Origin: SAR202 cluster bacterium
Lineage (GTDB): Bacteria > Chloroflexota > Dehalococcoidia > UBA3495
Direction of reading: 5' to 3'
Length of the DNA stretch: 38,857 nt
Assembly (NCBI GenBank): GCA_009392775.1
Contig: VFFT01000135.1
Coordinates: forward strand, 1-38,857
Below are positions 2,428-37,321 of the stretch, piece after piece. The notes below the pieces were generated by a model, which did not search any database, was not told where the DNA came from, and saw only the letters and a list, made by a program, of their open reading frames with translations. The number at the start of each line of letters is the position of its first letter. The first letter of the stretch is position 1. Made by a program: the position numbers and the translations under genes.

Positions 2428-2931
2428 CTAATCACCGTAGCTACCATATGTTCTCTTCTCACCAGAAGGAAGTAATCCTGCAGCATTTATCTGCTTTAGT
2501 ACATCTGCAAAGCCTCCGTGGTCAGACATAATGGTACGCATTTCATTGTCTATAAGAGCTTGAGTAGTCTCTAACTCATCTATATCTTCCAGTATCTCAT
2601 CCAGAGTTGTGTGCCTTATACTTCGTTCTTCATCAACTGAATCTTTTATCAGACCAAGAGATGTTTCTAATCCAGTAATAGATTGTTCAATATCTGACAG
2701 ATCAACATCTTCCCTTTCAGATAATTTTGCTACTTCTTCTATTAGATTGTCTACCTCTGTCTGAAGAACAGCAACATCAACAGTTGCTTGGGACTCCTGC
2801 ATAACAGCTACAGATGAGTCTAAATTAGAAACAGTAGAATCTAACTGTGCTACATACCAGATGATTCCAAAAGCTTGAGCAACTATTGCAATAACTATGC
2901 CGATAGATACCTTCATATTTTTAATATCCAT
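2428..2931 (-). CDS. Membrane-anchored coiled-coil protein, 167 aa (paralogue of the next gene upstream)
   Basis: One N-terminal membrane helix (about residues 8-28, VSIGIVIAIVAQAFGIIWYV) is followed by long heptad-like acidic helices (residues 30-150) rich in Leu, Ile, Asp and Glu. The first 44 residues match those of the 288-aa protein at 2948-3814 at 39 positions, and similarity continues to VAVLQTEVDNL near residue 62. The pair must come from a gene duplication. An N-anchored coiled coil could act in the periplasm or at the inner face of the membrane, for example in lysis or superinfection functions, but the role is unknown. AAAGGA lies upstream of the start. Confidence 0.8.
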   Translation of the reverse strand: MDIKNMKVSIGIVIAIVAQAFGIIWYVAQLDSTVSNLDSSVAVMQESQATVDVAVLQTEVDNLIEEVAKLSEREDVDLSDIEQSITGLETSLGLIKDSVDEERSIRHTTLDEILEDIDELETTQALIDNEMRTIMSDHGGFADVLKQINAAGLLPSGEKRTYGSYGD

Positions 2932-2947
2932 ACCACAATTCCTTTAA

Positions 2948-3814
2948 TTATTCGTGACCGTGCAGTTCCCAAATATCTTTATCTAGTTGAGATATTTTGT
3001 CCGTTATCTCGTCAAATCGCCAACTTGCTGCTCCTCCAGAAGCATCCGAAGTAACAGCGTTTAAGTGATCTATTTGTACCCATAACTCTTCTAATCTTTC
3101 ATCTATATCAGTATCGTTAGATTTTTTAGAATTTTCTTCTTTCGAAATGTCACTGAGTATGTTGCTATATTTATCAAGTCGAGAATCTAGCTCTTCAAGT
3201 AAGCGATAAAGTTCTAAATCTACAAACTCAGCATCATAGCCAGAAGACGCGGCAGGGGGAGGTAGGGCAGGAACAGAATAACCGTGAGTCTCTACGTAAC
3301 CAAAGAATTCTGCAATTTCATCGAATCTTTCTTTTAGATGTTGTACCTCTATATAGATACCATCGTTAGCTTGGAGATTATCAAGTTCATCAACCTTCCA
3401 ATCCATATCTTTTATTTCTTGTTTCCGATCATTTACTGACTCTTTTAGAAGCTGTATCTCAGTATAGAGTCCATCTAAATTAGCGGGCGGTTGAATATTA
3501 TTAAACTCGCTATGGAAATGTGAGTCTGAACTTACAATGTCATACTCAGGATGGAAGTGTTGCTGTTGATCGTGGAAGTGTTCAGGTGCTTGGGGGTTAT
3601 CAGCAATATTCTGTATTCTTTGTTCAAGGCTTTCGACTTTAGTTTGAAGCACAGCAACATTTATAGTAGTTGCTTGCTCTTTCATAACAGATACGGTTGA
3701 ATCAAGATTAGATACTGTGGAATCAAGTTGAGCCACGTACCAAATAATTCCAAACGCTTGGGCAATAATTGCTATAACAATCCCAATGGAAACTTTACTA
3801 TTCTTAAGATCCAT
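2948..3814 (-). CDS. Membrane-anchored coiled-coil protein with His-rich segment, 288 aa
   Basis: It begins with the same anchor as its paralogue (one membrane helix, residues 8-28) and a heptad-rich segment to about residue 72. A histidine-rich stretch at about 77-110 follows, with repeated HFH motifs (EHFHDQQQHFHPEYD and then SHFHSEF). More predicted coiled coil follows (about 113-175 and 195-285), separated by a Pro/Ala hinge (SVPALPPPAASSG). The HFH repeats look able to bind Zn, Ni or Cu ions. Function is unknown. A GAGGGAG ribosome-binding site precedes ATG 3814. The gene follows the glutaredoxin by a short gap and probably belongs to the same transcript. Confidence 0.8.
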   Translation of the reverse strand: MDLKNSKVSIGIVIAIIAQAFGIIWYVAQLDSTVSNLDSTVSVMKEQATTINVAVLQTKVESLEQRIQNIADNPQAPEHFHDQQQHFHPEYDIVSSDSHFHSEFNNIQPPANLDGLYTEIQLLKESVNDRKQEIKDMDWKVDELDNLQANDGIYIEVQHLKERFDEIAEFFGYVETHGYSVPALPPPAASSGYDAEFVDLELYRLLEELDSRLDKYSNILSDISKEENSKKSNDTDIDERLEELWVQIDHLNAVTSDASGGAASWRFDEITDKISQLDKDIWELHGHE

Positions 3815-3832: not shown

Positions 3833-4063
3833 TTAACTAATTTTCATCAATGCTTCATCTATTTTTGGTTTATTGTAGCCCACAACAACCTCATCACCGA
3901 TTACTGATACTGGAGTACTTCTGTACCCCATTGATAACAACTCTCTCTGCGAATCCATATCAGTCGATACGTTATGTTCTGTAAAATCAAAACCACTTCG
4001 TGAAAGATACCCTTTCACCATATGACAAGGACCTCAACCATTTGAAGTAAATATTTTAATCAT
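3833..4063 (-). CDS. Glutaredoxin/NrdH-like selenoprotein candidate (UGA at catalytic residue 10), 76 aa
   Basis: The frame starts at ATG 4063, five bases after a GGAGG Shine-Dalgarno. It reads MIKIFTSNG, then TGA (4034-4036), then GPCHMVKGYL and on to TAA at 3833. The TGA takes the place of the first cysteine of a CGPC redox motif, giving U10-G-P-C13. Everything downstream is an intact glutaredoxin fold: RSTPV with cis-Pro P51, IGDEVV strand, and VGYNKPKI helix cap. A hairpin typical of a bacterial SECIS begins 15 nt after the TGA. Reinitiation at ATG 4021 has no ribosome-binding site and would remove the active site. TGA is a stop in at least five other genes here. The gene starts 9 nt after the nrdJ stop, so it is probably the electron donor for the reductase. 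A sequencing error or natural C-to-TGA mutation is the alternative. Confidence 0.82.
4000..4018 (-). promoter_or_regulatory. Putative bacterial SECIS hairpin within the glutaredoxin gene
   Basis: On the mRNA, GUGAAAG pairs perfectly with CUUUCAC around a five-base loop GGUAU. The loop begins 22 nt after the UGA. Bacterial SECIS elements bound by SelB are coding-region stem-loops shortly downstream of the UGA with a G in the first two loop bases; the E. coli fdhF loop also carries an essential GU. Both features are present here. The match is by eye; no folding energy was calculated. Confidence 0.72.
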
Positions 4064-4072
4064 CGTTCCTCC

Positions 4073-6316
4073 TTATCCACATTTAGAATAGCCACATGCT
4101 CTACAAGACTCACAGCCTTCTGCCATGATGAGAGGTGACTGACATACCGGACATTCATCTACACTAGCCATAGCTGCCGCTGCACCTTCAGTAAAGGAAT
4201 CTACTGACGGAGCAGAATCAACTGTAGGAGTATCAATCGCCTCACCAAGTACCTTAGAGATACCATCAGCGATAGATTGAACTAATACACCATTATCCCA
4301 AACTGGATTACTTTGTATTCCAGATAATTGATTAATGATCTCAGCAGTAGGAATTCGGTATTGCATAGCTAATGAAATTAATCTGCAGATAGCTTCAGTG
4401 TTAGCATGAGCAGTTCCACCAGCTTTACCTATAGTTGCAAATACTTCATACAGTTCTCCCATGTCATCACTATTCAAAGTGACATACATAGTCCCCTGAC
4501 CAGTATTCATCTTAGTGGTAGTACCTTGTAAGTTACGTGGACGATTCGCTATACCTTCTGAAGGAATAGGAGAGTCAGAAACTGTCTTTTGGTTAGTAGC
4601 TACAAGAACCTCATCTCTGCGACTACCTTGTCTATAAACAGTAATGCCCTTACAGTCACCGCCCCATGCTTGCATGTAAGCATTATATACATCTTCTTGT
4701 GTAGCACTATTAGCTAGGTTAATAGTTTTAGAAATACCACTATCAACATACTTCTGCCACACAATTTGCATGTTTACATGAGCTTCTGGAGAGATAGTTT
4801 CGGAAGTTTTATACAAACTTGCCAACTTATCGTCCAAAAGATCGCTAATGTCGCCACCATTGTCTAAATATGCATCCAAATTGTCATGATTTAACGCATC
4901 TCTTAGACCTTTAACCGTATAAAACAACTCAACATTCGCCATTGCAGCAGACATATTGTGTTTTTTGAAGGATAAAGAGAAATGTGGCTCAATTCCTGAC
5001 GATGTATCGGCAATCATGCTAATAGTTCCAGTAGGAGCGATAGATAATCGCCATGCGTTACGCATATTCTTCCATTCACCGCCATTCTTCTCATTAAGAG
5101 GAGATTCATCGAAGGCAGGGAAGTCTCCACGCTCTTTTCCTAGTGAACTACTGTAGTTATCAGCAGTTGTTTTAAGAACTGCTCCTATTTTATCTGCTAT
5201 AGATAAAGCTTCAGTAGAATCGTATGGAATTTCCATACTAACCAAGCAATCAGCCAATCCCATCACACCAAGACCGATCTTACGAGTCTGTGCATTAACA
5301 GTCTGAGTCTTTTTAGTTGGATGGTGGTTAACACTAATGACGTTATCAAGTAAACGTGTGCAAGTTTCTATAATTTCTTTGAATCTATCGAAATCAAATT
5401 CCTTACGCTCATTAACAAAGTTACCTAAATTAATACTTCCTAAGTTACAAGACTCTCCTGAAAGCAAAGGCTGCTCACCACAAGGGTTAGTAGCATTTAT
5501 CTGACCAAGTTGGGGTGTTGTGTTATCTCTATTAATACGATCTAACCAAACCATTCCCGGTTCACCGTTTCTCCAAGCACCTTTAGTAATATCGTTGAAC
5601 AAACCACGAGCACTTATATAAGAATCATCTTTTGGAGAATCATAAGAATTCTTATCTAATGGATAAGTTAAATGGAGATACTTATCATCCCTAACAGCTT
5701 TCATGAAGTTACTATCAGCCCCAACACTAATGTTGAAGTTCTTGATCTTGCCTTCTTCGGTTTTACAAGTAATAAATTTCTTTATATCGGGATGATACAC
5801 AGACATGATTGCCATATGAGCGCCGTCTCTCTTACCGCCCTGAGTAATCATCGTGCCAACCTGACTAAGCGTCTCTAAGACAGCGATAGGACCACATGCC
5901 TTACCTTGAGTAGTTTTTATTGGAGTTCCTTCGGGACGAAGATCACTGAGACTAAATCCGATTCCCCCGCCGAACTTCTCGATCATCGCTTGATCATGTG
6001 CAGTCATCATAATGGAAGACATAGAGTCATCTATATCCATAACATAACAAGCAGAAAGGGTTCCTTGACCAGTTCCTGCATTCATTAAGGTAGGACTATT
6101 AGGAATAAAATCTAGATCCCACATAACATTGAAAAATCGATCTGCCCATCTAGCTTGATCTGCTTTCTTTTCAGCACCAGCTAGAGAATTTGATACACGT
6201 TTAAACATTTCTATAGGCGTTTCAATCGGTGAGCCATCTTCACCTTTCTGAAGATACCTCTGTTCCAATGTGAATAATGCGTTATCGGTGAGATTTCCTG
6301 TGTCCTTAATTACCAT
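4073..6316 (-). CDS. nrdJ: Class II (adenosylcobalamin-dependent) ribonucleoside-diphosphate reductase, 747 aa
   Basis: It reduces ribonucleotides to deoxyribonucleotides for phage DNA synthesis, using B12 to form the thiyl radical without oxygen or a second subunit. Visible family signatures are FIPNSPTLMNAGTGQGTLSAC (redox Cys C90), FGGGIGFSLSDLRP, the active-site loop N277-P-C279-G-E281 with radical cysteine C279, partner cysteine C290, PTGTISMIADTSSGIEPHFS, and a C-terminal zinc-ribbon CPVC...CESCRACGYSKCG. That tail is typical of NrdJ enzymes and shuttles reducing equivalents from a glutaredoxin or thioredoxin. Length is usual for the compact NrdJ type. Its ATG overlaps the ruvC-like stop (TAATG). 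Its own stop TAA runs into the GGAGG of the glutaredoxin gene. Confidence 0.97.
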   Translation of the reverse strand: MVIKDTGNLTDNALFTLEQRYLQKGEDGSPIETPIEMFKRVSNSLAGAEKKADQARWADRFFNVMWDLDFIPNSPTLMNAGTGQGTLSACYVMDIDDSMSSIMMTAHDQAMIEKFGGGIGFSLSDLRPEGTPIKTTQGKACGPIAVLETLSQVGTMITQGGKRDGAHMAIMSVYHPDIKKFITCKTEEGKIKNFNISVGADSNFMKAVRDDKYLHLTYPLDKNSYDSPKDDSYISARGLFNDITKGAWRNGEPGMVWLDRINRDNTTPQLGQINATNPCGEQPLLSGESCNLGSINLGNFVNERKEFDFDRFKEIIETCTRLLDNVISVNHHPTKKTQTVNAQTRKIGLGVMGLADCLVSMEIPYDSTEALSIADKIGAVLKTTADNYSSSLGKERGDFPAFDESPLNEKNGGEWKNMRNAWRLSIAPTGTISMIADTSSGIEPHFSLSFKKHNMSAAMANVELFYTVKGLRDALNHDNLDAYLDNGGDISDLLDDKLASLYKTSETISPEAHVNMQIVWQKYVDSGISKTINLANSATQEDVYNAYMQAWGGDCKGITVYRQGSRRDEVLVATNQKTVSDSPIPSEGIANRPRNLQGTTTKMNTGQGTMYVTLNSDDMGELYEVFATIGKAGGTAHANTEAICRLISLAMQYRIPTAEIINQLSGIQSNPVWDNGVLVQSIADGISKVLGEAIDTPTVDSAPSVDSFTEGAAAAMASVDECPVCQSPLIMAEGCESCRACGYSKCG

Positions 6317-16228: not shown

Positions 16229-19200
16229 CTAATAGTGGCTATTTAATCCACCAGCATTGGAAGATGAATTATACACAACAATATAGTTTATTACAGCACC
16301 ATTAATAGTAGTTCCACCAGAATCTCTAACTGTTAGAGTAACAGTTGTAGTGCTGGTAGATGAGATCGTAAAAGGCGTAATATGAACAAATCCAGCACTT
16401 TCTGATGTAGCCATAATTCTAGGATTGGCAGTCAGCGCAGGCAAAGTAACTGTTGCCTCGCCGACAGAATTACAAGTTACTCTACCACTAAGTCCAACAA
16501 ACACCTCTGATTGAAGTTTAGGGGTATCAGTATCCCACTCATCATAAGTATCAGCGCTATTAAAAATACCTCTATGCGCTAAATATAATCCTCGTCCTTC
16601 ATTAGCGGTGTCAGAATCTCTTAAATAAAGCGTAGCTTCTCCATCGTTAGGATGGAAGTTAGGAGTAGAACCTGTATTGCCAGTTACTTTATCTCTTCCT
16701 ATAAATGTTATTCCCGCACCACCAGAAGCATCCCCAGTATCATCCGCACGTAATCCCTGCATATCAATACGAAGCAAATCTTTATCTACAGTTTCACGAG
16801 TAGGGAAGTTCTCATACATCTTCCACGAAAGACGGAAATCATCAGGAAATGTTTGAGTATGAGTTCCTGCAATAAGACCGGGACTAGGAACATCAATTGA
16901 ATTTGCAAGATTAGTAGGACTCATCTCCATACGTACCGAAGGACGACTAGGACCTTCAGGTAAGAAATCCAATGCCTTTTCAACCGCTTTATCAATAGGC
17001 TGAAAAACCGCGTTAGCTGTTTCTCTAAGGTGAGAAGATAGGTCACGAAGAAGTTGTTTTTCCGCATCACCCGGCTCAGACACAGCAGAAAGATCCCTAA
17101 ATAAGGTTAATTCAACACCGCCATCAACAGCGCCAGTAATAATTGAGTAGACCATCCACGATTCATTCACAATTCCTGCGTTATAAAGAGATACATTTGC
17201 TAAATCTCCTGCCCGCAAAACCTTCGGCATACCGTTTCCATTAAGAAACACAGGAAAACCATCGATTTTAATAGTAGCTTCCCTAATTGAAGTAGGTAGT
17301 AAAACACCATCTGTACCAGCATGCCCTCCAGAAAGATCGGCTGCTATAGCAAAAGTAGTGTCAGTTATTTTCTGTATTGTTCTATACCCATCTATAGATG
17401 GAACAGAATTTGTACCAGTTATTCGAACCGAATCACCAGTCTGTAAATTATGAGGCTCAGCTATATACGCATATCCTAATGTATGTGTTGGAGTAGTACC
17501 CGCACCAATCCCATCTAACTGTATAGAACTACCTTCATTAGAAACCCTTGAAACAGTGCTTAATACATTATTAACCGCGGAATGCGGGGTTGCTACTAAT
17601 CTAACTTTATCTCCTACAGCTAAATCCGTATTAGCCATAGGATGAACTATAGAACCAATAGCGTCCAAACTATTATCTAACACAGTTGTCGTGTCTGGAT
17701 CAGGTGCGGTATTTAATACACTCATTTGGTGGGCTAATGCATAAGTGCCAGTTAAAATTGAATCTGAAGTTTGTACATAAAATTGTTTTTGTCCGGTAAC
17801 CACTATTTTATGAACGTAGTTATAACTCATCGGATTATCGGCAGAAAAAGAACCAATACCATGAAAACGCGGAGCCGTATTAGCGACGTCCGTAATTAAA
17901 ACCCTATCCCCTGTATTTAAGTTATGAGCAGTTCCAGTAGTTATATAAGTACGATTAAATATGTAGACCTCTAAGTTATCTGCATGAGAAGTAGACGTTG
18001 TTCCATTAGCATTCCGTTCAACAATTAAAACGGTAGAACTGGGGATACCCGTAATTAACATCTGTTCTGCGCCTACCAAAATAACATTACCGACAATAAA
18101 ATCAGCCGTTGAATCAACAGTAATGCTACCAACAGAGTTATTAATAGCACCGTCAAGCGCGGTAGTGTTAGTGCTATTCTCCGCAGAGTTGCCAGTAATC
18201 TCTAATCCTTTATTCTCAAATAATGTCACATTCATAGGATTATTATTATCAGTATATGTTAAATACTTATAAGTTCCGCCCGTAGTTATTACAGAAGGTC
18301 GAGCAGCAGTAATATCTAATATATCTATAGGAGATTTAGCCCCTAACTGCTCCAACGAAGCTTTAGCCCTCTGCATACATTGAATGTCATTAACTAGGGA
18401 AGTGTCATCGATAACTTTTTCTTTAACTACACGAAACTTACGAATACTATCTTCGTCCCTAGCTGTAGCATAAGCTCCAGCAATACCACGAACTGTAACA
18501 ACATTTACAAAATCAATTGCATTATCTTTTAACTCATAAGACGTTACTCGAACATTACTACCTTCATTTTGTGTAATTTCTCTATCATCAAGGTTTATCC
18601 CATAAGTAAGAAGATTAGTTGCGTGACGTTTGTCATCAGAACCTGAAATAGTATTTGTTTCTAAATCAGGATTCCAAACATAAGGACCGCCCCAAACACG
18701 AGACAAAGAAATAGCACTTGCTGCCGCTGTCGTAAATCTATATCTAACAAAATAATATTGATTACCGAATGTCTTATTTAAATGCTGTTTTTGATAACCG
18801 TCAGCTTGTGTAGAGGGATCTGTAATACCTGCTTTACAAGATTTCCACATACCAAAACCGGGAACAAAGAAATCTATTTCATGATCGCTATCTACAGAAT
18901 ATCCTTTAAATCCTCCAGATAAATCATTTACATCAAGAGCAGCCCAGTTAGGACTTAATCCAGTATTATCAGCCCGATAATACTCCCACACTCCTACCCC
19001 TAGACCACCATCAGCAAACACAGAAGTTAAAGAATCTATTCTCAACTGAGTAAAAGGCGAATGCCAACCAAAATAGATCGCGTCTCCAGCCGCACTAGGA
19101 ATTGTTGCAGGATCAGTAGTTATATATCCTTGGTTGGCGGTTCCAGTACTAGATATATCTATATTTACTGTAAAAATTCTAGGAGAGAGAACCTCTTTGA

Positions 19201-22200
19201 CATGAGTTGTAGTATTTAAACTACTGATAGATGTTCCAACTATCGTAATAGTCTGACCTTCTTCTAAGTTATGTGGATTCTCAGTAAAGATTCTTCCAGC
19301 ATCTGCTGCCTCACATGCAGCAATGGCTGTATAAGATCGAACCGTACCAGTATCAGTAAGAGCAGAAGTAACATTTACAAATGTTCCATCCTCTTGTCTG
19401 TATTTAAATTCATTTGAATTCACTACCTCGTTAACCCTATACACATTACTTGTGGGAGGAGAACTACTAGTTCCAGTAAATATAACTACATCATTAGGTC
19501 TAAATTCATGTGCCTTATCAGTACGAATAGTACCCGGTTGCCCTATACCTGAAGAAGCAATAGTAAGTGCTTGAGTATCAACAGAATCAGAAGATACATC
19601 AGGAGTAATATCTTTAAACTTAGTGAAATGAACCAAATGTCTGTCAGCAGAAGACCAACCCGATACAAAAAACTTATTTATTACAAATGTAGTAGAAGAA
19701 GGAACACGGTCTACTTTCCAAATACCATCATTATGATCACTGTCGGTTCTTGAGTTGACATCAGACTCTAAATACACATTTGGGGTTATTTGAACCATAT
19801 CACCGACTGAAAGTCCGTGAGCTATAGGATAACCCACAGAGTATCCTGTAGTGAATTCTGTGTAACCAAGAGAAGCTTGTGAAGAATAAATAAAAACTGA
19901 ACTTTGATAAACACTTGAACCACTAGAGTGTGCCGCTGCAGTAGTACCGTTAACCCCTCTAACACAAGTCATCGGATTACCGTCATCTGTTATAAATATT
20001 TCTTCACTATCTATCTTGATAGTCATACCGGGATCGATATTACTATTATTAGCCATAGTAAGAGTTGTTTGGCTAGAGTTCATCGCCGCATTAATAGTAG
20101 TATTTGAAGAAGCAAACCCACCAGAAGCATCATACGTATAAACAGCATCTAAATCTTCATTAGCAGCAGAACCTCTAGGCGAAACAGTTCTATTAGCAGC
20201 CCAAGGCTCCTTACCTCTGTCAAAATATTTAAACCTAGCGTTAGTAGCTGTTCTTACATGCCTTAACTGCATTGGAGTTCTTGGTGTCCCACTAATACGA
20301 ATACGCATCCAATACAAACTTTTGGTATTAGGAGGGCGAGAAACTCTTTTCATCTGTAAAGTGTCATTAGCAGAAAAAGATAGTCCTGTTCTGCCGCAAT
20401 CAAATGTAAATGTATACCGATCTGTAACAGTTTTTACTCTATAAACACCATCCAAATCATTACCGTCAGCATTGGTAAAAATAATGTAATCGCCCACCGC
20501 ACAATGATGTGCAGTAGTAAATGTCATAGCTATATCGGTTGTGCTACCAACATAAGCGGTAGTACTAGCATACATTTGTGCGGTATTAGCATTATTATGG
20601 GTAGCACGAGCACCAGTACCCATAGAATGTGAAGAATAAGGTCCAATTAATGAAGATCGCGTACTCCAAGTATTACTATTTGACATTTGGTATGCCAAAT
20701 CATATTCTGCAACGCCTAACTCACGAGGCGGATTAACCGGAGGAAGTATTCGATCAGGATTTAAATTAGTATCTTTTAAAGCTTGATTATTTCTAGGCTT
20801 ATCCGTATTAAATCTAATTTCGTTATACCAATTAATAACCCCTTCAGTAGCGTGTCCTCCATCAAAACGCCATCTAGTGGGTCCAAAAGGACTAGCAGGA
20901 TACCAAGTGCCATCATAACCAACACTTGAACGAGCGGCCCAAGATATATCATTGTAATTAGCATTTTGAACCTGAAGAGTTCTCCACGCAGTAGTACCAT
21001 CTATACGACCATCAGTATTAGCACCCCAATAATTTCTGGGAAAAGTATCTAAAACATCAAACTTCATAGAAACATTACCGTAGTCAGGAATGCCTGTGAT
21101 CAGACTACCCAGAGTACCAGCCGCAGTATTATTCACAGCTACACTAAATGTCGTAGTAGATATAACAGTTACCTGCCGATAGCCATCTACAGTAGTACCA
21201 CTATTACTACCTGTAATCACAACATAATCACCTGTTGCAAGACCATGCTCCTGTGAAGTTGTAATAACGGCAGGATTAGCTTGTGTTATAGAAGTAATTT
21301 GAATCAACTTTCCTTGTTGAGTACTTAACTCAAGACCATTAAAAGGTTCCTCACTCCCTAAATAAAGCATTTGAGAATTATCAACTAAAGCACCAGCCGT
21401 ATTTGATTCATTACTCCAAAGTAGTATCGAACCAGACCCAGAGTTACCACCAGTTGTATTAAGTGATCTCCATAACCCACCTGTCATATCATGATTACTT
21501 TCACTAAATAACGAAACTGAAACTGTAGCGCCATTGCTATGAGTAGCAGCAGTTGTTCCGCCAAAACCGCGAGTAACAGTAAGAGTATTACTGCTAATTC
21601 CTGTAATTAACATATCTTCAGAATCAACAGTAATGACATCATCCAAAGCAAAAGAGGCTGCAGCCGTCACATCAATACCAGTCTCAGAGGCATCTAAAGC
21701 CTCTGCAAGAGTGGTTGAGTCTATGTTAGAAGAATATCTCCAAACCTCATCAAATGGTTTTGGATCTTCTGCACGAAAATCTCTAAATGTTTCAGGTAGG
21801 GTATACAAAGATACTGTAGCTAGCTGAGCAGGAATAGTGCCATTAACCGCATCGCCGTATGATAAGGCTGCAGCAGTTGTTCCGTTGTAACCTCTAGTAA
21901 CATTTAACTGAGTAGTCCCGCTAATAGAAGTTATAAACATATCCTCGTCGCGTGATGTAATAACCTGCCCATCAGAAAAATCAAGGGCATTATCAATAGT
22001 TGTATGGTTAGCGTGAGGGTGTCTTTCTACATCAATAGCAGTATTAGAAGCAGAGTATCCACTAACATTATTTACATAACCATAACTGTCAGACTTTCTT
22101 ACAAAACATCTAACCCAATATTTATAAGTTCCTCTGCCTTCACCTATATTCATGGAAGGAATAGCAGAACTAGTTACATCATCAGTACGTACTGACCCTC

Positions 22201-25039
22201 CTACCTCAAGAATAGTTTCCGTAGCGGATGCACCAGATTTCTCAGTGACATCTATGGCTCCTGAATTATAGGGATGAGGTGTGGTTGTCCATAACTCACT
22301 CGAATTATCATAGTTCCCAAAGGTATCAATGCCACCATTAGTACCTTTATAGTAATCCCATAAATTAACTGTATAAGGACTAAGAACTTCTACATAGTTC
22401 AACCCGTTTAAAAATCCAGCCTCTCCTACCTCACCACCGGGATACTTATTCTTAATACGAATAGAATGACCAGTAAATTTATATTTTCCACTACCTGTAT
22501 TAAATCCTCCTCCGTTATAAACGGTCAAAGTAGAATCGGTGGTAGTTCCAGTAGTAGATGCAGATTGATGACCAAAACGGAAACTCCAAAGCCCATTTGA
22601 ATTCCCGCTATTATCCTGAACCCATAAACCCTGATGCACGGTCCCATCAAACTGCAGACCTGTACCTTGGTTGTATGTTCTATCACCATTAGTAGTAGAA
22701 TTATATTTGTCAGAGACTGGTTTGCTATACAGCCAAGCAGTATAAAGCCAATCACCGGGAGCAGTACCCATGGTTATAGAAGGCTCATTTCCATTTGTTG
22801 AATATTGATAATTTGCGGCACGATTGTCTGTACCTATATCAGGAGCCGTACTCGTATCAACACCACTAAACAAAGAAGCCTGAATATTATGACCATGATA
22901 ATTTCCTATACCCCCACCACCATTGCCCGGATAAACACTAATGGTTTTTAATCCAGATTCAGGATTCATGACATAAAAAGATTTTATGGCACTTCTTGTT
23001 TGAGACGGAACCCAATCAGCCCCACTATTATAAGATTGACCCCAATCCAATATATGGTTGTTATTGTGATGAGAATTATAACCACCTACAACAGTCATCT
23101 GAGAAACATTCGTCACAGTATTACTAGAAGGATCGTAATCACCAAGATAGGCATACCCATTACTCCCTGACTCAAAAGACTGGGCGGGAATACCATAAAC
23201 CTTAACAAATTCCATTATAGACACTATCAACATAGTGTCTGTTCTACCTTCAGGAATCAAAATTTCTAAATCTAATCTTCCATGAGTATAGTTATATCCC
23301 ACAGCACCAGAGTGGTTTGTCCAACCCGGATCAGCATGAGGACCATACGATCTAAATGCCCCTTCCCATCCAGTAAAATTAGTGCCTCTTAATTTATCTC
23401 CATTACGTAAACCATGAGGTTTAGGATTACCTGTTGGATAAGGACCATCATAAGTAGTTAATTGAGCAGTATTAGGTGGTATTCTAAAATGATCAAACTT
23501 ACTGGAAGCGAAAGGAGTTTTCCAAGCTTTCCATTTAGCATTATCAGTGTGAACTCCGGTAGTAACCGCCCCATCCCCTCCTTGCGAAGTATTTCCATCA
23601 CTATAAGAATGCATATCCACAGATTGTGCTAAATCTCTCTTAGCCCAATCCGCCATACCCTGCTTATGACCGCCAATAACTTTACTATTATCAGCATGAG
23701 CATTACTTGACTCGTTAGCAGTACCCGGATAATTTCTGTAAACGGTAAGTGTATTACCATTAATAGAGATTATCCGCATAGTTTCTGTAGTAGTGTCAGC
23801 CGCACCTACTTGAATAAGCCCACCTACGGATAAATTAGCAGAAGAATCTACAACTATATCTTCAATAGAAAAAGGAACAGTATTTACACTCAAGGCTCCG
23901 TCTAACTGAGTACTTACAGCAGTTGGAGTATTTTTTCCTGCGACAGTATTAGTCATACTAGTGTCGCTTATTAACGAAGACCAGTACGCACGACCAGTAA
24001 CAGTTTCTGTATCTCGAGAATCTGCCTTGAATTTAGTGTCATAATCAGGAACAAATCTAGTCCAATGTTTACCATCCCAATACTGCCACTCTAATTCATC
24101 ATAATTAGATTCATGAATCTTTCCGCCACTCTGTCTGAAGGTATACTCTATTCCGTCAAACTTAGAGTTTGATCCAAAATACATAATGTCATTTTGTTGG
24201 GTAGCGTCTACAGTAGAAGGAAAAGCAGCTTCTTTATCAGGCGTACCTGTAGTAGTACCGTAAACAGATTTGGCATTAACTACATGCCTAGGCGTAGAAA
24301 AAACTTCCGTACCATCGGCTATACCACCAGTATGATCTACCCAATAAGTAGAAGGAAATCTCTTACTATCAGCTAAATAAGCATCACTTGCAGGATCAAC
24401 AGGAGTATCAGTGTAATAAAAAACCTGTAAATCTTGTTGAGCATCTTCAGTAGATACCTGAGACAAAGCCTCTAAAACCGTCGTAGCTCCTCGATAATTA
24501 TAATTAGAAGCAGAACGATCACTAGGATTAATACCATACATTCCACGAATAGAATAGGTTTTAGTAATAGATTCTAAATAATTTCCAGTATCTTGTAACA
24601 TCCTAGGAAGAAGAGTTCTATCCATATCCTGACCGATTTCTGGCTCTTCTGATTCTTCTTCTACTAACTTCGACAAAAGTCCATTTCTAGAAGCGGCGGT
24701 ATATTTACCATCGCCACTCTCTGCCAAAATAACTCTATCTGATAATTCTCCTAGATAATCCCTACATGTAAGAATAAGCTTACTGTCCTGAAAACTAGGC
24801 GTAATAGAAATAATTCTTCCTAAAAAGGCGGTTATTCCAAATGCATCTAAAATCCGCACACGCTGCATAACACTATAAATACGTTCTTTATTATTAAGTG
24901 GATTATTTATAGAAACTTGAGCAATACGGCTTCTATTACCCAGACTATCTACCATAGTCCAATATTCCATACTTGGCTCAGTAGTCCAAGCCTCAGATAT
25001 GGTGTGGTCTAATCGAGAAAGGTGTGAATACTGAAACAT
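16229..25039 (-). CDS. Giant modular tail hub/fibre protein, 2,936 aa
   Basis: The largest gene here. Residues 1-120 look like a tail-hub domain: MQRVRILDAFGITAFLGRI followed by LILTCRDYLGELSDRV, as in baseplate-hub or tail-associated proteins. Two repeated beta modules follow. The first, with end signature VxRGxxGTTAAxHxxG, occurs near residues 440, 1053, 1163, 1698 and 2346. The second, with HxLxxGDxVxITG...YrV...F, an FCCH-like module, occurs near 1268, 1520, 1743, 1848, 1930, 2376 and 2534. Gly/Asn/Ser-rich beta regions lie between (about 520-1000), recalling adhesins. The C-terminal 250 residues include TLYLRDSDTANEGRGLYLAHRG and a beta domain like those of receptor-binding tips. It probably forms the distal tail and contacts the host. 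Being next after the tail proteins supports this. The exact role of each part is inference. Confidence 0.85.
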   Translation of the reverse strand: MFQYSHLSRLDHTISEAWTTEPSMEYWTMVDSLGNRSRIAQVSINNPLNNKERIYSVMQRVRILDAFGITAFLGRIISITPSFQDSKLILTCRDYLGELSDRVILAESGDGKYTAASRNGLLSKLVEEESEEPEIGQDMDRTLLPRMLQDTGNYLESITKTYSIRGMYGINPSDRSASNYNYRGATTVLEALSQVSTEDAQQDLQVFYYTDTPVDPASDAYLADSKRFPSTYWVDHTGGIADGTEVFSTPRHVVNAKSVYGTTTGTPDKEAAFPSTVDATQQNDIMYFGSNSKFDGIEYTFRQSGGKIHESNYDELEWQYWDGKHWTRFVPDYDTKFKADSRDTETVTGRAYWSSLISDTSMTNTVAGKNTPTAVSTQLDGALSVNTVPFSIEDIVVDSSANLSVGGLIQVGAADTTTETMRIISINGNTLTVYRNYPGTANESSNAHADNSKVIGGHKQGMADWAKRDLAQSVDMHSYSDGNTSQGGDGAVTTGVHTDNAKWKAWKTPFASSKFDHFRIPPNTAQLTTYDGPYPTGNPKPHGLRNGDKLRGTNFTGWEGAFRSYGPHADPGWTNHSGAVGYNYTHGRLDLEILIPEGRTDTMLIVSIMEFVKVYGIPAQSFESGSNGYAYLGDYDPSSNTVTNVSQMTVVGGYNSHHNNNHILDWGQSYNSGADWVPSQTRSAIKSFYVMNPESGLKTISVYPGNGGGGIGNYHGHNIQASLFSGVDTSTAPDIGTDNRAANYQYSTNGNEPSITMGTAPGDWLYTAWLYSKPVSDKYNSTTNGDRTYNQGTGLQFDGTVHQGLWVQDNSGNSNGLWSFRFGHQSASTTGTTTDSTLTVYNGGGFNTGSGKYKFTGHSIRIKNKYPGGEVGEAGFLNGLNYVEVLSPYTVNLWDYYKGTNGGIDTFGNYDNSSELWTTTPHPYNSGAIDVTEKSGASATETILEVGGSVRTDDVTSSAIPSMNIGEGRGTYKYWVRCFVRKSDSYGYVNNVSGYSASNTAIDVERHPHANHTTIDNALDFSDGQVITSRDEDMFITSISGTTQLNVTRGYNGTTAAALSYGDAVNGTIPAQLATVSLYTLPETFRDFRAEDPKPFDEVWRYSSNIDSTTLAEALDASETGIDVTAAASFALDDVITVDSEDMLITGISSNTLTVTRGFGGTTAATHSNGATVSVSLFSESNHDMTGGLWRSLNTTGGNSGSGSILLWSNESNTAGALVDNSQMLYLGSEEPFNGLELSTQQGKLIQITSITQANPAVITTSQEHGLATGDYVVITGSNSGTTVDGYRQVTVISTTTFSVAVNNTAAGTLGSLITGIPDYGNVSMKFDVLDTFPRNYWGANTDGRIDGTTAWRTLQVQNANYNDISWAARSSVGYDGTWYPASPFGPTRWRFDGGHATEGVINWYNEIRFNTDKPRNNQALKDTNLNPDRILPPVNPPRELGVAEYDLAYQMSNSNTWSTRSSLIGPYSSHSMGTGARATHNNANTAQMYASTTAYVGSTTDIAMTFTTAHHCAVGDYIIFTNADGNDLDGVYRVKTVTDRYTFTFDCGRTGLSFSANDTLQMKRVSRPPNTKSLYWMRIRISGTPRTPMQLRHVRTATNARFKYFDRGKEPWAANRTVSPRGSAANEDLDAVYTYDASGGFASSNTTINAAMNSSQTTLTMANNSNIDPGMTIKIDSEEIFITDDGNPMTCVRGVNGTTAAAHSSGSSVYQSSVFIYSSQASLGYTEFTTGYSVGYPIAHGLSVGDMVQITPNVYLESDVNSRTDSDHNDGIWKVDRVPSSTTFVINKFFVSGWSSADRHLVHFTKFKDITPDVSSDSVDTQALTIASSGIGQPGTIRTDKAHEFRPNDVVIFTGTSSSPPTSNVYRVNEVVNSNEFKYRQEDGTFVNVTSALTDTGTVRSYTAIAACEAADAGRIFTENPHNLEEGQTITIVGTSISSLNTTTHVKEVLSPRIFTVNIDISSTGTANQGYITTDPATIPSAAGDAIYFGWHSPFTQLRIDSLTSVFADGGLGVGVWEYYRADNTGLSPNWAALDVNDLSGGFKGYSVDSDHEIDFFVPGFGMWKSCKAGITDPSTQADGYQKQHLNKTFGNQYYFVRYRFTTAAASAISLSRVWGGPYVWNPDLETNTISGSDDKRHATNLLTYGINLDDREITQNEGSNVRVTSYELKDNAIDFVNVVTVRGIAGAYATARDEDSIRKFRVVKEKVIDDTSLVNDIQCMQRAKASLEQLGAKSPIDILDITAARPSVITTGGTYKYLTYTDNNNPMNVTLFENKGLEITGNSAENSTNTTALDGAINNSVGSITVDSTADFIVGNVILVGAEQMLITGIPSSTVLIVERNANGTTSTSHADNLEVYIFNRTYITTGTAHNLNTGDRVLITDVANTAPRFHGIGSFSADNPMSYNYVHKIVVTGQKQFYVQTSDSILTGTYALAHQMSVLNTAPDPDTTTVLDNSLDAIGSIVHPMANTDLAVGDKVRLVATPHSAVNNVLSTVSRVSNEGSSIQLDGIGAGTTPTHTLGYAYIAEPHNLQTGDSVRITGTNSVPSIDGYRTIQKITDTTFAIAADLSGGHAGTDGVLLPTSIREATIKIDGFPVFLNGNGMPKVLRAGDLANVSLYNAGIVNESWMVYSIITGAVDGGVELTLFRDLSAVSEPGDAEKQLLRDLSSHLRETANAVFQPIDKAVEKALDFLPEGPSRPSVRMEMSPTNLANSIDVPSPGLIAGTHTQTFPDDFRLSWKMYENFPTRETVDKDLLRIDMQGLRADDTGDASGGAGITFIGRDKVTGNTGSTPNFHPNDGEATLYLRDSDTANEGRGLYLAHRGIFNSADTYDEWDTDTPKLQSEVFVGLSGRVTCNSVGEATVTLPALTANPRIMATSESAGFVHITPFTISSTSTTTVTLTVRDSGGTTINGAVINYIVVYNSSSNAGGLNSHY

Positions 25040-27897: not shown

Positions 27898-30294
27898 TTA
27901 CACCGAACCAAAGAAAGCGGCATCTTCTAAACTAGCCATTCGATTTAATCTAGATAATAACTCTGATGTATTTTCTGTTGTATAAACAATTACTTGCATT
28001 GGACGATTAACGGTAGGAGCAAAAACACCGCCTCCTCCTGCACCAGCCAAAGAATGACCACCGCTTGAAATCATATTTCCTGCAGTAGCTGCAGCCCAAT
28101 TAGTACCCAGATGAGCAGGAAGTACTACCTCACCGCCGTGCATTATAGTAGGAACAGGCGCACCTACCGGACCGGGAATCATACCGCCCATCTGCCGTCC
28201 GGGCCAGCCCCAACTCGAAGCCTTACTCGCAAGCCAACCGCCCCCGGATATAATGCCGCTTCCTGCGCCCTGAAGTGTGTTAGTTATTGGATTATCCATA
28301 ACGCTGTTCCAACCACCTTCACCCCATCCCTCATCCATACCCCTCCTACTGTCACCCTTTCTAGTAGTAGCAGTCTGGTCATCCTCCCCAGCTAGCCAAT
28401 CCCAACCCTTTTTTATAGTCTTTGCAGCGGTTATCTGTGGGCCTATTATAGGAAGCTTCTCTAATATATTTATACCCGTATCTACCGCTGGCGATTCTAC
28501 TATTTTTTCCATAGTACCTCTGTGGTCTGGATGTGTATCGGGAAGCCAAGGACCATGATCATCTGGATGACTACCGTATGTAGCACCATTACCGCCACCT
28601 AAGCCAAGCCCGCCATAAATATCATCGTAAGTAAATATAGGAGGATGTGATGGGGTTTGGTCCAGCAGGTCTACCCCATAGTACCCATCTGACGATATAA
28701 ATTCGTCTGCATCTCCATAATTAAAATTTGGATCTTTACCTGATCCTGCTACATCCGACCAACTACCAGAAGACGACGGAGCATCACAATCTAGACCAAA
28801 TTTCTTAAGAACAGCTTTGTTATCTACGCCCTTTATATTTGGTAGCACAGAAAGAACAGCATCACATAAACCGCTTTTTACCCAGTCTTTAACTTTACCG
28901 TATATCTCCGCTAAAGCCTTTCCCCAATCTCCGTACCAAGACGTACCATCATTCTCACTTATACCGGGGACCGTGGGAGGTTCTTCATCCTCCCCAAAAG
29001 GCCAAAGCCATCCCCAAACTTTTTCTGCCCATTCCTTGGTTTTACCCCATACAGCAGCCATAGTAGCTCCCCAATCGGGCCACCAAGACTTACTATCTTC
29101 ATCTGTTATACCATCAACTTCTGGATCTAAATACGTCTCTTCTTCAGAATCTGGGTCTTTCTTAAGAGGATTAAGCCAACCAAAAACCTTTCCAGCCCAC
29201 TCTTTAGCTTTATTCCAAGCTAATTTCATCCCATTCCAAACACCTTTAAACAAGTCTCCAATTTTTGACAAAAGTCCGGGTTCTTCCCCTTTACTTTTAT
29301 CTAAATTTTCTTCAGCAGCAGTCTGCATTCCTGTATAAACGCGACCCACACTACTTATTGTGTCGGGTACGATGCTTCCGCCAAGCATGTCGTAATACCA
29401 TCGTTCAAGATTACGTCTAGTACTAATAGATATCTTGTCTGTAGTTGCGGTAACTTTTTTCTGAATAGAGGAAAAACTGTTTGCAGCATCCCCCATTCCT
29501 CCCAAAATGGTCTGGAATATACCTCCTAAACCACCACCAGAACCTCCAGCACCACTCAACGGTATAACTGCCTCAGGACCTGCCTCACCAATAAGAGCAT
29601 TAGTAGGTTGAGTTACAACACCACCTTTAGCCATACCTACCCTGTCTCTTCCAAGCGCCATCCCAATTTTCATAGGAATAGACATGTGGGGGGGAAGCAA
29701 ATTTATAGGATTTTTACGATCTCCTCCACCCACAGAACCACCTACAATGCTAAGTAACTTCGCAAGACCTGCCATAGCTTTTGCTATATTTGGTCCATTT
29801 CTAGCGAGCCAATCCCCAACTTCAGTAGCTTTTTTAGTGCCTTCTCGCAGCCACCACTGAAGAAATCTCATCATATGGGGAATCAGCGGCATAAGAGCCA
29901 TATCTATCATCATAGAAGTCATTTGAAAAAATGTTTTTGACATAGTTCCAAATATCTTGCTCATGCCAAGTAATTGTTTAGCTATACCGACAATGGCTGT
30001 AACTCCAGTTGCAACACCAGCAATTGGCCCACCAGCAGCAAAAGCCTTTCCAACGCTCATCATTGTTCTAGCCATAGGAGCCTGACTAGCTAACCCACCT
30101 AATGCACCTGCTTGAACATTACGTTTAGCAATTGCCTGAGCACGCATACGATTTAAATGAGCTTGACCTGTTGTACCGGAGCCGGGTACTGGAGGAATTG
30201 TTTCAAGAGGACTGCCCAATCCACCAACGGCAGCGCCAACCTGACGCCCACCTTCGTGGATCATCCTCATTACTGCATTTATCTCTAATGCCAT
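27898..30294 (-). CDS. Tape measure protein, 798 aa
   Basis: It sets tail length and passes DNA through the membrane. Two signatures typical of tape measures are present: AKGGVVTQPTNALIGEAGPE with AVIPL at about 222-246, and GGMIPGPVGAPVPTIMHGGE with VVLPAHLG near 710-740. A Gly/Ala/Met-rich hydrophobic segment (about 80-160, MMSVGKAFAAGGPIAGVATG onward) could span the host membrane. Three Trp/Lys-rich repeats (about 350-475), each with WxxAKEWAxKVxGWLxP-like helices, are unusual. It follows directly after the tail chaperones, which fits. By the usual rule of about 1.5 angstrom per residue the tail would be near 120 nm, if all residues count. Shine-Dalgarno GGAG precedes ATG. Confidence 0.92.
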   Translation of the reverse strand: MALEINAVMRMIHEGGRQVGAAVGGLGSPLETIPPVPGSGTTGQAHLNRMRAQAIAKRNVQAGALGGLASQAPMARTMMSVGKAFAAGGPIAGVATGVTAIVGIAKQLLGMSKIFGTMSKTFFQMTSMMIDMALMPLIPHMMRFLQWWLREGTKKATEVGDWLARNGPNIAKAMAGLAKLLSIVGGSVGGGDRKNPINLLPPHMSIPMKIGMALGRDRVGMAKGGVVTQPTNALIGEAGPEAVIPLSGAGGSGGGLGGIFQTILGGMGDAANSFSSIQKKVTATTDKISISTRRNLERWYYDMLGGSIVPDTISSVGRVYTGMQTAAEENLDKSKGEEPGLLSKIGDLFKGVWNGMKLAWNKAKEWAGKVFGWLNPLKKDPDSEEETYLDPEVDGITDEDSKSWWPDWGATMAAVWGKTKEWAEKVWGWLWPFGEDEEPPTVPGISENDGTSWYGDWGKALAEIYGKVKDWVKSGLCDAVLSVLPNIKGVDNKAVLKKFGLDCDAPSSSGSWSDVAGSGKDPNFNYGDADEFISSDGYYGVDLLDQTPSHPPIFTYDDIYGGLGLGGGNGATYGSHPDDHGPWLPDTHPDHRGTMEKIVESPAVDTGINILEKLPIIGPQITAAKTIKKGWDWLAGEDDQTATTRKGDSRRGMDEGWGEGGWNSVMDNPITNTLQGAGSGIISGGGWLASKASSWGWPGRQMGGMIPGPVGAPVPTIMHGGEVVLPAHLGTNWAAATAGNMISSGGHSLAGAGGGGVFAPTVNRPMQVIVYTTENTSELLSRLNRMASLEDAAFFGSV

Positions 30295-30310
30295 TAAATT
30301 ACTCCGTCAA

Positions 30311-30561
30311 CTAACGTGGAAAATTATAAGAAGTTCCTGAAGGACGTTGTCTTACACCTCTTCTAGGAGGAGACGGAGGTTGGGGCGGTCCATATACTTG
30401 TTGAGGCGGCTTATCGTCCCCAGCTAAGAATTTCTGCCCAATGAGAAATCTATACAATATCTGACGATCACTCATCGTATTTATTTCGTCTAAGGTATAT
30501 CCAATCTGCCTTAGAACTATCTCCATCGTAAGTCTTATGCTTAGAACATCTTCCCCAGCAT
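30311..30561 (-). CDS. Tail assembly chaperone frameshift extension (ribosome slip -1)
   Basis: This frame is read mainly after a -1 slip at 30568-30574 from the upstream gene. The slipped frame reads RIDAGEDVLSIRLT and then MEIVLRQIGYTLDEI, continuing 71 residues from ATG 30526 to TAG 30311. It is open from the slippery run to its stop. The fused product would be 243 residues. The C-terminal part is proline-rich and ends in RQRPSGTSYNFPR. Fusion of tail chaperone proteins G and GT by frameshift is conserved among phages, and the location just before the tape measure gene fits. Independent translation from ATG 30526 has no clear ribosome-binding site. Confidence 0.8.
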
Positions 30562-31041
30562 CTATTCTTTTTTTATTTCCTCAGTCTCCTGAGATGTCTC
30601 TACTGGGTTTGGAACTATAGAAATAAGCTGTTCACCAATTCTTCTGTCTAACTTAGCCAGAGTTGTTTCAGTTATAGGTCTAATAGGAGTATCCACTAAC
30701 ATTAAAGAAAGTGCTTTAACATAATATTTATTTACGCTAAATTTAAATTCCCCGTTATCCCATTCCTGAGCTTGGTCAACACAAGCATTTTTATCGCCCC
30801 AATTAAGATCTTTGTAAGTAAAGACCCACTTCTGACCCTTAAAAATAATTTCAAGAGTCTTAGTTTCCTCCGACGCAAAAAGAGATCCCGAATCTGTTCC
30901 AACTGGAAAATCTTCTACAATCGTTTCCGTTTCCTGTACCATGTCCTCTGAACCCTCCTGATCCTTTACCTGTTGTGTGGCTTCCGGGTTTTTCCTCGGT
31001 CTGCCCCTTTTCCTTCCTGTACCTTTACCTTCCTGTACCAT
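30562..31041 (-). CDS. Tail assembly chaperone (G-like, zero-frame product), 159 aa
   Basis: It would coat the tape measure protein during tail assembly. The position immediately upstream of the tape measure gene and the A7 run at its 3' end support this. Residues about 30-158 are the conserved-like body (FKGQKWVFTYKDLNWGDKNACVDQAQ). Residues 1-33 add a basic AT-hook, GRKRGRPRKNP, unusual for a chaperone. A 19-base direct repeat including Shine-Dalgarno and ATG occurs at both the first and an in-frame internal ATG (30942), so two start forms (159 and 126 aa) are possible. Confidence 0.82.
   Translation of the reverse strand: MVQEGKGTGRKRGRPRKNPEATQQVKDQEGSEDMVQETETIVEDFPVGTDSGSLFASEETKTLEIIFKGQKWVFTYKDLNWGDKNACVDQAQEWDNGEFKFSVNKYYVKALSLMLVDTPIRPITETTLAKLDRRIGEQLISIVPNPVETSQETEEIKKE
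30568..30574 (-). promoter_or_regulatory. A7 slippery site for -1 frameshift
   Basis: The zero frame reads ATA AAA AAA GAA TAG. A tandem slip on the seven A bases yields AGA ATA GAT..., which is open through the downstream frame. The stop comes one codon after the slip. A weak hairpin (ATGCT ... AGCAT, 15-base loop) lies just downstream. Homopolymeric A slips are efficient in bacteria. Confidence 0.75.
30931..30949 (-). repeat. 19-bp direct repeat, internal copy
   Basis: AGAGGACATGGTACAGGAA on the minus strand. It carries GAGGAC before an in-frame ATG at 30942, 99 bases after the matching copy at the gene start (31030-31048). Confidence 0.85.
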
Positions 31042-31048
31042 GTCCTCT
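31030..31048 (-). repeat. 19-bp direct repeat, copy at the start codon
   Basis: Identical to the copy at 30931-30949 and holding the Shine-Dalgarno and annotated ATG (31041) of the tail chaperone gene. The two copies bound the AT-hook segment, which suggests it arose by duplication or insertion between repeats. Confidence 0.85.
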
Positions 31049-31062
31049 CCTTATTTCATAAA

Positions 31063-31347: not shown

Positions 31348-31359
31348 AACTAATTCCTA

Positions 31360-33141: not shown

Positions 33142-33177
33142 GTGCTACCTCATTTATTAAATAAACGAATTAAAAGG

Positions 33178-33564: not shown

Positions 33565-33565
33565 C

Positions 33566-35616: not shown

Positions 35617-35619
35617 TCA

Positions 35620-36219: not shown

Positions 36220-36268
36220 CTAAACCAAACCTCGCCTTTTTATATATAAATGAATATATTTATCCCTC

Positions 36269-36297: not shown

Positions 36298-36319
36298 TAA
36301 AAACTCATCCTTCTTCCAC

Positions 36320-36673: not shown

Positions 36674-36682
36674 ATTCTTCTC

Positions 36683-37312: not shown

Positions 37313-37321
37313 CGGACTCTC

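What the first reader, a model, noticed from the sequence alone, without database searches (positions are those of the whole stretch)
3833..4063. Phage glutaredoxin with in-frame UGA at the catalytic cysteine (candidate selenoprotein) next to nrdJ
Seen: ATG with a strong GGAGG site, then nine codons, then TGA where the first Cys of CGPC is expected, then a full, otherwise intact glutaredoxin of 76 residues (C13, cis-Pro P51). A perfect 7-bp hairpin with loop GGUAU begins 15 nt after the UGA, the place and form of a bacterial SECIS. TGA is an ordinary stop in at least five other genes (1667, 6795, 8787, 11411, 34516), so it is not reassigned to Trp. Sec at this position is known to raise reactivity in thiol-disulphide enzymes. 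The gene follows nrdJ by nine bases, so the selenoprotein would recharge the phage reductase. I know of no established phage system of this kind; novelty is not proven.
Basis: partly seen in the sequence, partly recalled or inferred. Interest (0 to 1): 0.95.

Follow-up and report, generated by a model that had tools for sequence, protein, structure and literature searches.

The report
Phage glutaredoxin carrying selenocysteine
Several lineages of uncultured bacterial viruses appear to carry a small redox enzyme whose key residue is selenocysteine, inserted by the host's selenium machinery at a stop codon, often next to the viral enzyme that makes DNA building blocks.

Summary
Window 3833-4063 (-) is an intact glutaredoxin with an in-frame TGA at the first position of its UGPC active site, a Shine-Dalgarno site, and a 7-bp hairpin 15 nt after the TGA. 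It starts nine bases after a class II ribonucleotide reductase. It is no base error: all 25 IMG/VR contigs found with this motif (S[N/S]G-x-GPC) have TGA there, in six protein clusters, each with a possible stem-loop downstream; a pattern that also allowed Cys or Trp found no such viral copy. One more distant viral relative (L019, other motif) has Cys. In 74 bacterial loci the codon is TGA (20) or Cys (54). The hairpin goes with TGA, not with Cys. The nearest cellular relatives (66-73%) are eight Chloroflexota of SAR202 type, all with TGA and the same hairpin; with one Cys relative their nine genomes have selA, selB, selD (9 of 9) and tRNA-Sec (8 of 9). Best reading: a phage selenoprotein decoded by host Sec machinery, probably a reductant for the phage reductase. 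Sec-glutaredoxins are known in bacteria; my searches found no phage selenoprotein in print. Not shown: Sec in the protein, the host, the substrate.

The parts
3833..4063 (-). Glutaredoxin-family selenoprotein gene, 76 aa with Sec at residue 10 (UGPC active site); TAA stop at 3835-3833
   Evidence: PF00462 50.9 bits, cut-off 22.9; AlphaFold2 mean pLDDT 96.6; Foldseek best PDB match 7c10, titled Dithiol cGrx1
4034..4036 (-). In-frame TGA, read as the selenocysteine codon (residue 10)
   Evidence: TGA in 25 of 25 IMG/VR contigs with this motif
4000..4018 (-). SECIS-like hairpin GUGAAAG-GGUAU-CUUUCAC, 15 nt after the TGA; G at loop position 2
   Evidence: no synonymous change here among 7 SAR202-type genomes or between the window and L012
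4068..4072 (-). Shine-Dalgarno GGAGG of the glutaredoxin
4073..6316 (-). nrdJ, adenosylcobalamin-dependent class II ribonucleotide reductase, 747 aa; Cys-rich C-terminus (CESCRACGYSKCG)
   Evidence: (TIGR02504 634 bits, cut-off 400); C-terminal codons read

Best explanation
The gene encodes a selenoprotein glutaredoxin (UGPC redox motif) of a tailed phage. Shown by sequence: the frame is intact and changes mostly by synonymous substitutions, its UGA sits where relatives have Cys or UGA, and a SECIS-type stem-loop with a conserved apical G follows at the right distance. Inferred: during infection the host's SelB-tRNA-Sec complex binds the stem-loop and inserts Sec at the UGA. No tRNA-Sec was found in the phage pieces seen, so the phage depends on the host's selA, selB, selC and selD. 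For this clade the host is most likely a SAR202-type Chloroflexota (my estimate 0.75), from whose Sec-glutaredoxin the phage copy probably derives. The enzyme is most likely an NrdH-like reductant for the C-terminal cysteines of the adjacent phage class II ribonucleotide reductase (my estimate 0.6). The confidence given here is for the first claim, a phage-encoded selenoprotein.
For: UGA conserved: 8 of 8 contigs matching a TGN-tolerant pattern; 21 of 21 true glutaredoxins among 60 stretches matching a looser one. Together 25 contigs (some with identical genes), six clusters at 70% identity. Bacterial site codons: TGT 33, TGC 21, TGA 20 of 74. Hairpin: 25 distinct Sec sequences have 6-7 of 7 pairs at the place, 52 distinct Cys sequences 1-5. 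A bSECIS-style score is 13-18 in 18 of 18 distinct phage sequences (20 of 26 names given) and 0-10 in the 52 Cys ones. G at loop position 2 in 36 of 36 Sec sequences, both-side changes at pairs 1, 2, 3, 5 and 6 among the phages. Synonymous variation among 7 SAR202-type genomes in 44 of 71 codons, but in none of codons 15-21, the hairpin (Met15 cannot vary). Nine Chloroflexota genomes: SelA, SelB, SelD 9/9, each SelD with one in-frame TGA; tRNA-Sec 8/9 over cut-off, ARAGORN reading anticodon tca in the 5 of these looked at. Tree: both GPCHMVK phage clades lie with the SAR202-type sequences (90/77). RNR upstream on the same strand in 11 of 25 contigs and in the window.
Against: No protein evidence. 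The host is inferred from one gene: phage NrdJ is only 43-45% identical to NrdJ of these Chloroflexota, and the 120 RecA relatives listed name no organism. Only three of the nine nearest loci carry SAR202 in their titles; the others are titled Dehalococcoidia or Chloroflexi. In the second clade the full 54-nt fold prefers a 12-13 bp stem that includes the UGA, without the short hairpin. One phage hairpin (L147) is ordinary for its codons: 633 of 4000 recodings do as well. If any stem in the stretch counts, stems as long are common by chance (1143 of 10,000 for the window, 4021-4621 for second-clade members), and 4 of 52 Cys sequences have a 6-7 bp stem somewhere. Five Desulfosporosinus-type Sec sequences score 10, like the three best Cys ones. 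On the 24-row alignment only one pair changed on both sides, no more than in shuffles. The six second-clade contigs and L150 have no RNR in at least 2.8 kb upstream. L019, a viral relative at 40%, has Cys.
Confidence: 0.92

Rival explanations
1. Pseudogene or base error: the TGA is a nonsense mutation or sequencing artefact in an ordinary Cys glutaredoxin.
For: A single TGA in one contig would look like this; databases hold 62-aa proteins that start at Met15, after the TGA.
Against: TGA at this codon in 25 of 25 viral contigs with the motif, in six clusters. Window against L012: 18 synonymous and 6 non-synonymous codon changes. The frame before the TGA is kept, with a start codon.
Confidence: 0.02
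2. UGA is reassigned (to Trp, Gly or Cys) or read through by an ordinary tRNA in this phage's host; no selenium is involved.
For: P0008 and P0009 are deposited with Trp at this site, which would fit UGA=Trp.
Against: Five genes of the window end in TGA and a 2936-codon ORF has no in-frame TGA. Among 74 bacterial homologues the site is Cys or TGA, never TGG. The hairpin goes with TGA. The likely hosts have the Sec pathway. Most of P0009 is nearly identical to bacterial copies that have TGA, so its Trp is probably a code-4 gene call (inference).
Confidence: 0.03
3. Translation starts at an internal ATG just after the TGA, giving a 62-aa protein without the active site; the hairpin is incidental.
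For: Databases hold such 62-aa proteins, and the viral copies read all have a Met at residue 14 or 15.
Against: It would drop the first strand and residues 10 and 13 of a confident glutaredoxin fold. In the window GGAGG lies before the upstream ATG, and GGAGG-like sites lie there in most, not all, of the other copies. The codons before the TGA keep the (F/Y)TS(N/S)G sequence across the six clusters.
Confidence: 0.03
4. It is a selenoprotein, but its substrate is not the phage reductase: for example a peroxiredoxin, a methionine sulphoxide reductase or host thiols.
For: The second clade and L150 have no RNR nearby. A characterised bacterial Sec-glutaredoxin serves selenoprotein MsrA (title of Kim 2011 seen in a reference list; the paper itself was not held). 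No model places it in NrdH over the cut-off (TIGR02194 51 bits, cut-off 86).
Against: RNR lies upstream on the same strand in 11 of 25 contigs and in the window, adjacent in the window clade and L183. NrdH-redoxins are among the closest solved relatives.
Confidence: 0.35

Closest known systems
Bacterial selenoprotein glutaredoxin (Grx, PF00462, UxxC), e.g. Clostridium oremlandii cGrx1 and the ten Grx sequences of the Sargasso Sea selenoproteome
   Same: UxxC motif, glutaredoxin fold, in-frame UGA, SECIS with apical G. The best structural match is cGrx1, PDB 7c10, TM 0.91/0.94. Family listed in PMC1088965 and PMC13188914 (passages).
   Different: Those are described as bacterial genes; here the gene lies in phage contigs, in six clusters, often beside a phage ribonucleotide reductase. 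That 7c10 comes from C. oremlandii and that cGrx1 is the Sec-containing one is recalled.
Phage and bacterial NrdH / glutaredoxin that reduce ribonucleotide reductase
   Same: Size, fold, position next to RNR; Pfam Glutaredoxin and PHROG 22.
   Different: GenBank phage relatives are below 60% identity in all 299 and 533 records matched, 39-46% in the rows listed; the three that I read have Cys at the site.
UXX-star (seleno)protein families (NCBIfam NF041212 and kin)
   Same: Glutaredoxin-like selenoproteins; weak match (47.9 bits).
   Different: Below every cut-off (66-100 bits for NF041212, NF041211, NF047338, NF041114); not a member by those models.
Poxvirus selenoprotein glutathione peroxidases (molluscum contagiosum, fowlpox)
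   Same: Virus-borne selenoproteins that use host Sec machinery (passages of PMC8310308).
   Different: Eukaryotic viruses and eukaryotic SECIS; another enzyme family.
tRNA-Sec reported in Basilisk-like Bacillus phages (PMC6145125)
   Same: The only phage-selenocysteine link that I saw in the searches (passage).
   Different: A tRNA gene, not a selenoprotein gene; here no phage tRNA-Sec was found over cut-off.

Membership tests
Bacterial-type selenoprotein | In-frame UGA aligned with a redox-active Cys of homologues | tested here: met
   Site codon TGT 33, TGC 21, TGA 20 of 74 bacterial loci; TGA in 25 of 25 viral contigs with the motif
Bacterial-type selenoprotein | SECIS stem-loop just downstream, apical loop 16-37 nt from UGA, G at loop position 1 or 2 (rule recalled; small apical loop with G seen in PMC1088965) | tested here: met
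   Loop starts 19-23 nt after UGA in 18 of 18 distinct phage sequences; G at position 2 in 36 of 36 Sec sequences; Cys controls lack the stem at that place. L147's stem is not more than its codons would give
Bacterial-type selenoprotein | Sec machinery in the translating cell (selA, selB, selC, selD) | tested here: inconclusive
   Present in the genomes with the nearest homologues (SelA, SelB, SelD 9/9; tRNA-Sec 8/9), but that these are the hosts is inferred
Bacterial-type selenoprotein | Sec found in the protein (75Se or mass spectrometry) | not testable with these tools
   no proteome or culture
Glutaredoxin (PF00462) | Pfam score over cut-off, thioredoxin fold, cis-Pro, CxxC-type motif | tested here: met
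   50.9 bits against 22.9; fold E-H-E-H-E-E-H, pLDDT 96.6; T-P51-V and UGPC in sequence
NrdH-redoxin (TIGR02194) | Score over the curated cut-off | tested here: not met
   51.3 bits against 85.75
UXX-star (NF041212) | Score over the curated cut-off | tested here: not met
   47.9 bits against 66
Physiological reductant of class II RNR | Reduces oxidised NrdJ in vitro or in vivo | not testable with these tools
   gene order only

The most novel reading that the evidence does not exclude
Phage-encoded selenoproteins are a real and recurrent class: several phage lineages keep a Sec-glutaredoxin of the SNG-U-GPC type, with no Cys version of that type seen, often beside a B12-dependent ribonucleotide reductase, so that viral DNA-precursor synthesis depends on both the selenium and the cobalamin supply of the host, and the UGA ties the phage to Sec-decoding hosts such as SAR202.
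Probability: 0.55. Interest if true: 0.92.

Novelty: new variant of a known kind. Interest (0 to 1): 0.87.

Why it matters
Selenoproteins are rare and costly, and I found none in print for bacteriophages. Here six clusters of phage glutaredoxins keep UGA at the catalytic residue, and no viral Cys copy with this motif was found, which suggests that Sec itself is selected. It would link the viral lytic programme to the host's selenium supply, offer a possible host marker (phages of Sec-decoding bacteria), and show why such genes are missed: databases hold them as fragments that start after the UGA.

Tried and rejected
Own assembly: not held. The nearest virus record G001 lacks the gene; it overlaps window 29575-38857 at 99.97%, so it is the neighbouring stretch of the same or a nearly identical phage, not a counter-example. 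tRNA-Sec inside the phages: none in the window or G001, none in G020 and G021, one sub-threshold hit in L132's record (23.9 bits, cut-off 47). Rfam on the window at gathering cut-offs: 0 matches. Other selenoprotein candidates in the window and G001 (TGA with Cys at -3, -2 or +3 and open frames): five listed, of which only this gene looks real by eye. Host from NrdJ and RecA: uninformative. Hairpin-only pattern: 9 stretches, 8 the known glutaredoxins, L122 an unrelated gene. In one search, 39 of the 60 stretches were set aside as not glutaredoxin; one of them (L159, TGT) passed my regular expression but is not a glutaredoxin by eye, and L135 (TGA, cut by the contig end) failed it but is one. 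L019 (40% identity, motif CAPC) is a viral Cys glutaredoxin outside this motif group. Of 201 Chloroflexota genomes (200 drawn evenly, and G002) 5 matched the P0136 type at E 1e-8, 2 of them with TGA. A plasmid search with P0136 gave one NrdH. While checking this report I withdrew a claim that some phage copies lack a Met after the TGA: those read all have one.

Full report
What is there. The window is 38.9 kb of a tailed phage genome (DNA polymerase A, RecA-like, DnaB-like, primase, tail genes). On the minus strand at 4063-3833 lies a gene reading MIKIFTSNG[TGA]GPCHMVKGYLSRSGFDFTEHNVSTDMDSQRELLSMGYRSTPVSVIGDEVVVGYNKPKIDEALMKIS. It has GGAGG at 4072-4068 and follows the nrdJ stop by nine bases. 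With the TGA taken as a Cys-like residue it is a Pfam glutaredoxin (50.9 bits, cut-off 22.9), folds with high confidence (mean pLDDT 96.6; residue 10 lies just before the first helix) and is closest in the PDB to 7c10, titled Dithiol cGrx1 (TM 0.91/0.94).

The TGA is conserved. A DNA pattern that allows any TGN codon at the site found 8 IMG/VR contigs, all TGA. A looser pattern (SNG-x-GPC) found 60 stretches; the 21 that are glutaredoxins all have TGA, and the other 39 are unrelated frames, judged by eye after a regular expression that wrongly kept one and wrongly dropped one. Together that is 25 distinct contigs besides the window, some with identical genes, in six clusters at 70% identity (single linkage), with the motifs GPCHMVK, GPCAMTK, GPCMATK and GPCKMTK. 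Profile searches added no other viral relative with TGA beyond these contigs, and one viral Cys glutaredoxin of another motif (L019, CAPC, 40% identity), so Cys glutaredoxins do occur in phages outside this group. In GenBank phages the relatives are below 60% identity in all records matched and 39-46% in the rows listed; the three that I read have Cys.

Bacterial relatives. One scan of GTDB genomes gave 74 loci: TGT 33, TGC 21, TGA 20, nothing else. The best nine are titled Chloroflexi, Dehalococcoidia or SAR202 (three bear the name SAR202). Eight have TGA and 66-73% identity to the phage protein; the ninth (L028, 54%) has Cys. I call the group SAR202-type; that all eight belong to SAR202 is inferred from the similarity of their proteins. 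Three further Chloroflexota loci (UGSC), eight loci of the UPYC type (Desulfosporosinus and relatives) and one Symbiobacterium locus also have TGA. In a tree of 31 sequences the two GPCHMVK phage clades lie with the SAR202-type sequences (support 90/77, modest).

SECIS. In the window the hairpin GUGAAAG-GGUAU-CUUUCAC starts 15 nt after the TGA. SAR202-type glutaredoxins have GUGAAAG-UGUAU/C-CUUUCAC in exactly the same place. Over 25 distinct Sec sequences (7 phage, 18 bacterial) 6-7 of 7 pairs form; over 52 distinct Cys sequences only 1-5, though 4 of the 52 have a 6-7 bp stem elsewhere in the stretch. A score for a perfect stem with a short loop and an early G is 13-18 in 18 of 18 distinct phage sequences (20 of 26 names given), 10-21 in 18 bacterial Sec ones (five at 10) and 0-10 in the 52 Cys ones (three at 10). 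When the loops are centred (a register that I chose after seeing the stems), pairs 1-6 form in 105 of 108 phage cells and 102 of 108 bacterial Sec cells, against 143 or 169 of 312 Cys cells in the two registers. Loop position 2 is G in 36 of 36 Sec sequences, and five stem positions change on both sides among the phages. Part of that change follows amino-acid changes. On the earlier 24-row alignment, cells paired were 94% against 32-60% for slid partners, but only one pair changed on both sides, no more than in shuffles. Seven SAR202-type genomes vary synonymously in 44 of 71 codons but in none of codons 15-21, the hairpin (Met15 cannot vary); window against L012 shows none in codons 13-22 out of 18 synonymous changes. 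Synonymous randomisation of the score gives 2 to 120 of 4000 for 17 of the 18 phage sequences, and 633 of 4000 for L147. If any stem of the same length anywhere in the stretch counts, chance gives it often (1143 of 10,000 for the window, 4021-4621 for two second-clade members). In the second clade the full 54-nt fold prefers a 12-13 bp stem that includes the UGA; this would have to open on the ribosome before the short hairpin forms (inference).

Machinery. In the nine genomes behind L020-L028, SelA, SelB and SelD are over the curated cut-offs in 9 of 9, and tRNA-Sec over cut-off in 8 of 9 (the miss, G004, is a 1.6-Mb assembly). ARAGORN reads tRNA-Sec with anticodon tca in 10 of 10 loci examined, five of them from the nine genomes. 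Among 14 control genomes the over-cut-off counts were 5 (tRNA-Sec), 2 (SelB), 1 (SelA) and 2 (SelD); weaker hits are general, so only over-cut-off hits are counted. Each SelD has one in-frame TGA, so SelD is itself probably a selenoprotein there. No tRNA-Sec over cut-off was found in the phage pieces.

Role. RNR lies upstream on the same strand in the window and in 11 of 25 contigs: adjacent in the window clade (L005, L006) and in L183, about 1.6-1.8 kb away in the GPCAMTK and GPCMATK phages. Seven contigs have under 1.4 kb upstream and cannot tell. Seven (six of the second clade and L150) have at least 2.8 kb upstream and no RNR. A metagenome contig of 11,273 bp, labelled Candidatus Pacearchaeota, seems to hold both a 75% identical NrdJ (P0018) and a 62-aa fragment of the glutaredoxin (P0011) (that it is one contig is inferred from the length and label). 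The phage NrdJ ends in a Cys-rich tail of the kind that class II reductases use to pass electrons (recalled). Reduction of NrdJ is therefore the likeliest job (my estimate 0.6); it is not shown.

Known and new. Sec-glutaredoxin is a listed bacterial selenoprotein family (passages of PMC1088965 and PMC13188914). The 2026 review has no occurrence of phage, virus or viral in its main text. A marine survey says that the families it does not name lack or have only very few viral sequences (passage of PMC9402790), which leaves room for a few but reports no phage selenoprotein. Searches for phage or viral selenoproteins showed poxvirus cases (passages), Basilisk tRNA-Sec (passage) and otherwise listings that I did not open or that are on other subjects. 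The library lacks most subscription journals and all bioRxiv preprints, so priority is not proven. Some of the marine Grx selenoproteins reported since 2005 may in fact be phage genes (speculation).

Noticed in passing
window 29575-38857 and G001 (L114, L115): Virus record G001 (37,384 bp) overlaps the window end at 99.97% over 9283 bp, so the phage continues about 28 kb beyond the window.
   Followed up: partly
L132 / L153 (IMGVR_UViG_3300032820_000003, 85,063 bp): Long phage contig with UGA-glutaredoxin, an RNR upstream and a protein with a sub-cut-off match to phage portal downstream; a good candidate for a fuller genome study.
   Followed up: partly
G002-G010, SelD loci (L112, L113): All nine genomes have SelD with one in-frame TGA, with a GGU-containing hairpin downstream in the two read; these bacteria may have a wider selenoproteome.
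   Followed up: no
L081-L084, L086, L089, L090, L092: Desulfosporosinus and related genomes carry a UPYC glutaredoxin with TGA and a GCGAA/UUCGC hairpin.
   Followed up: no
window 2428-2931 and 2948-3814: Two neighbouring ORFs downstream of the glutaredoxin match the same PHROGs (19911, 8909) at their N-termini, a likely tandem duplication.
   Followed up: no
   Followed up: no
P0011 and P0018: A contig with NrdJ and a glutaredoxin fragment like the phage ones is labelled Candidatus Pacearchaeota archaeon, probably a binning error.
   Followed up: no
window 16229-25039: ORF of 2936 aa without in-frame TGA; I ran no family search on it.
   Followed up: no
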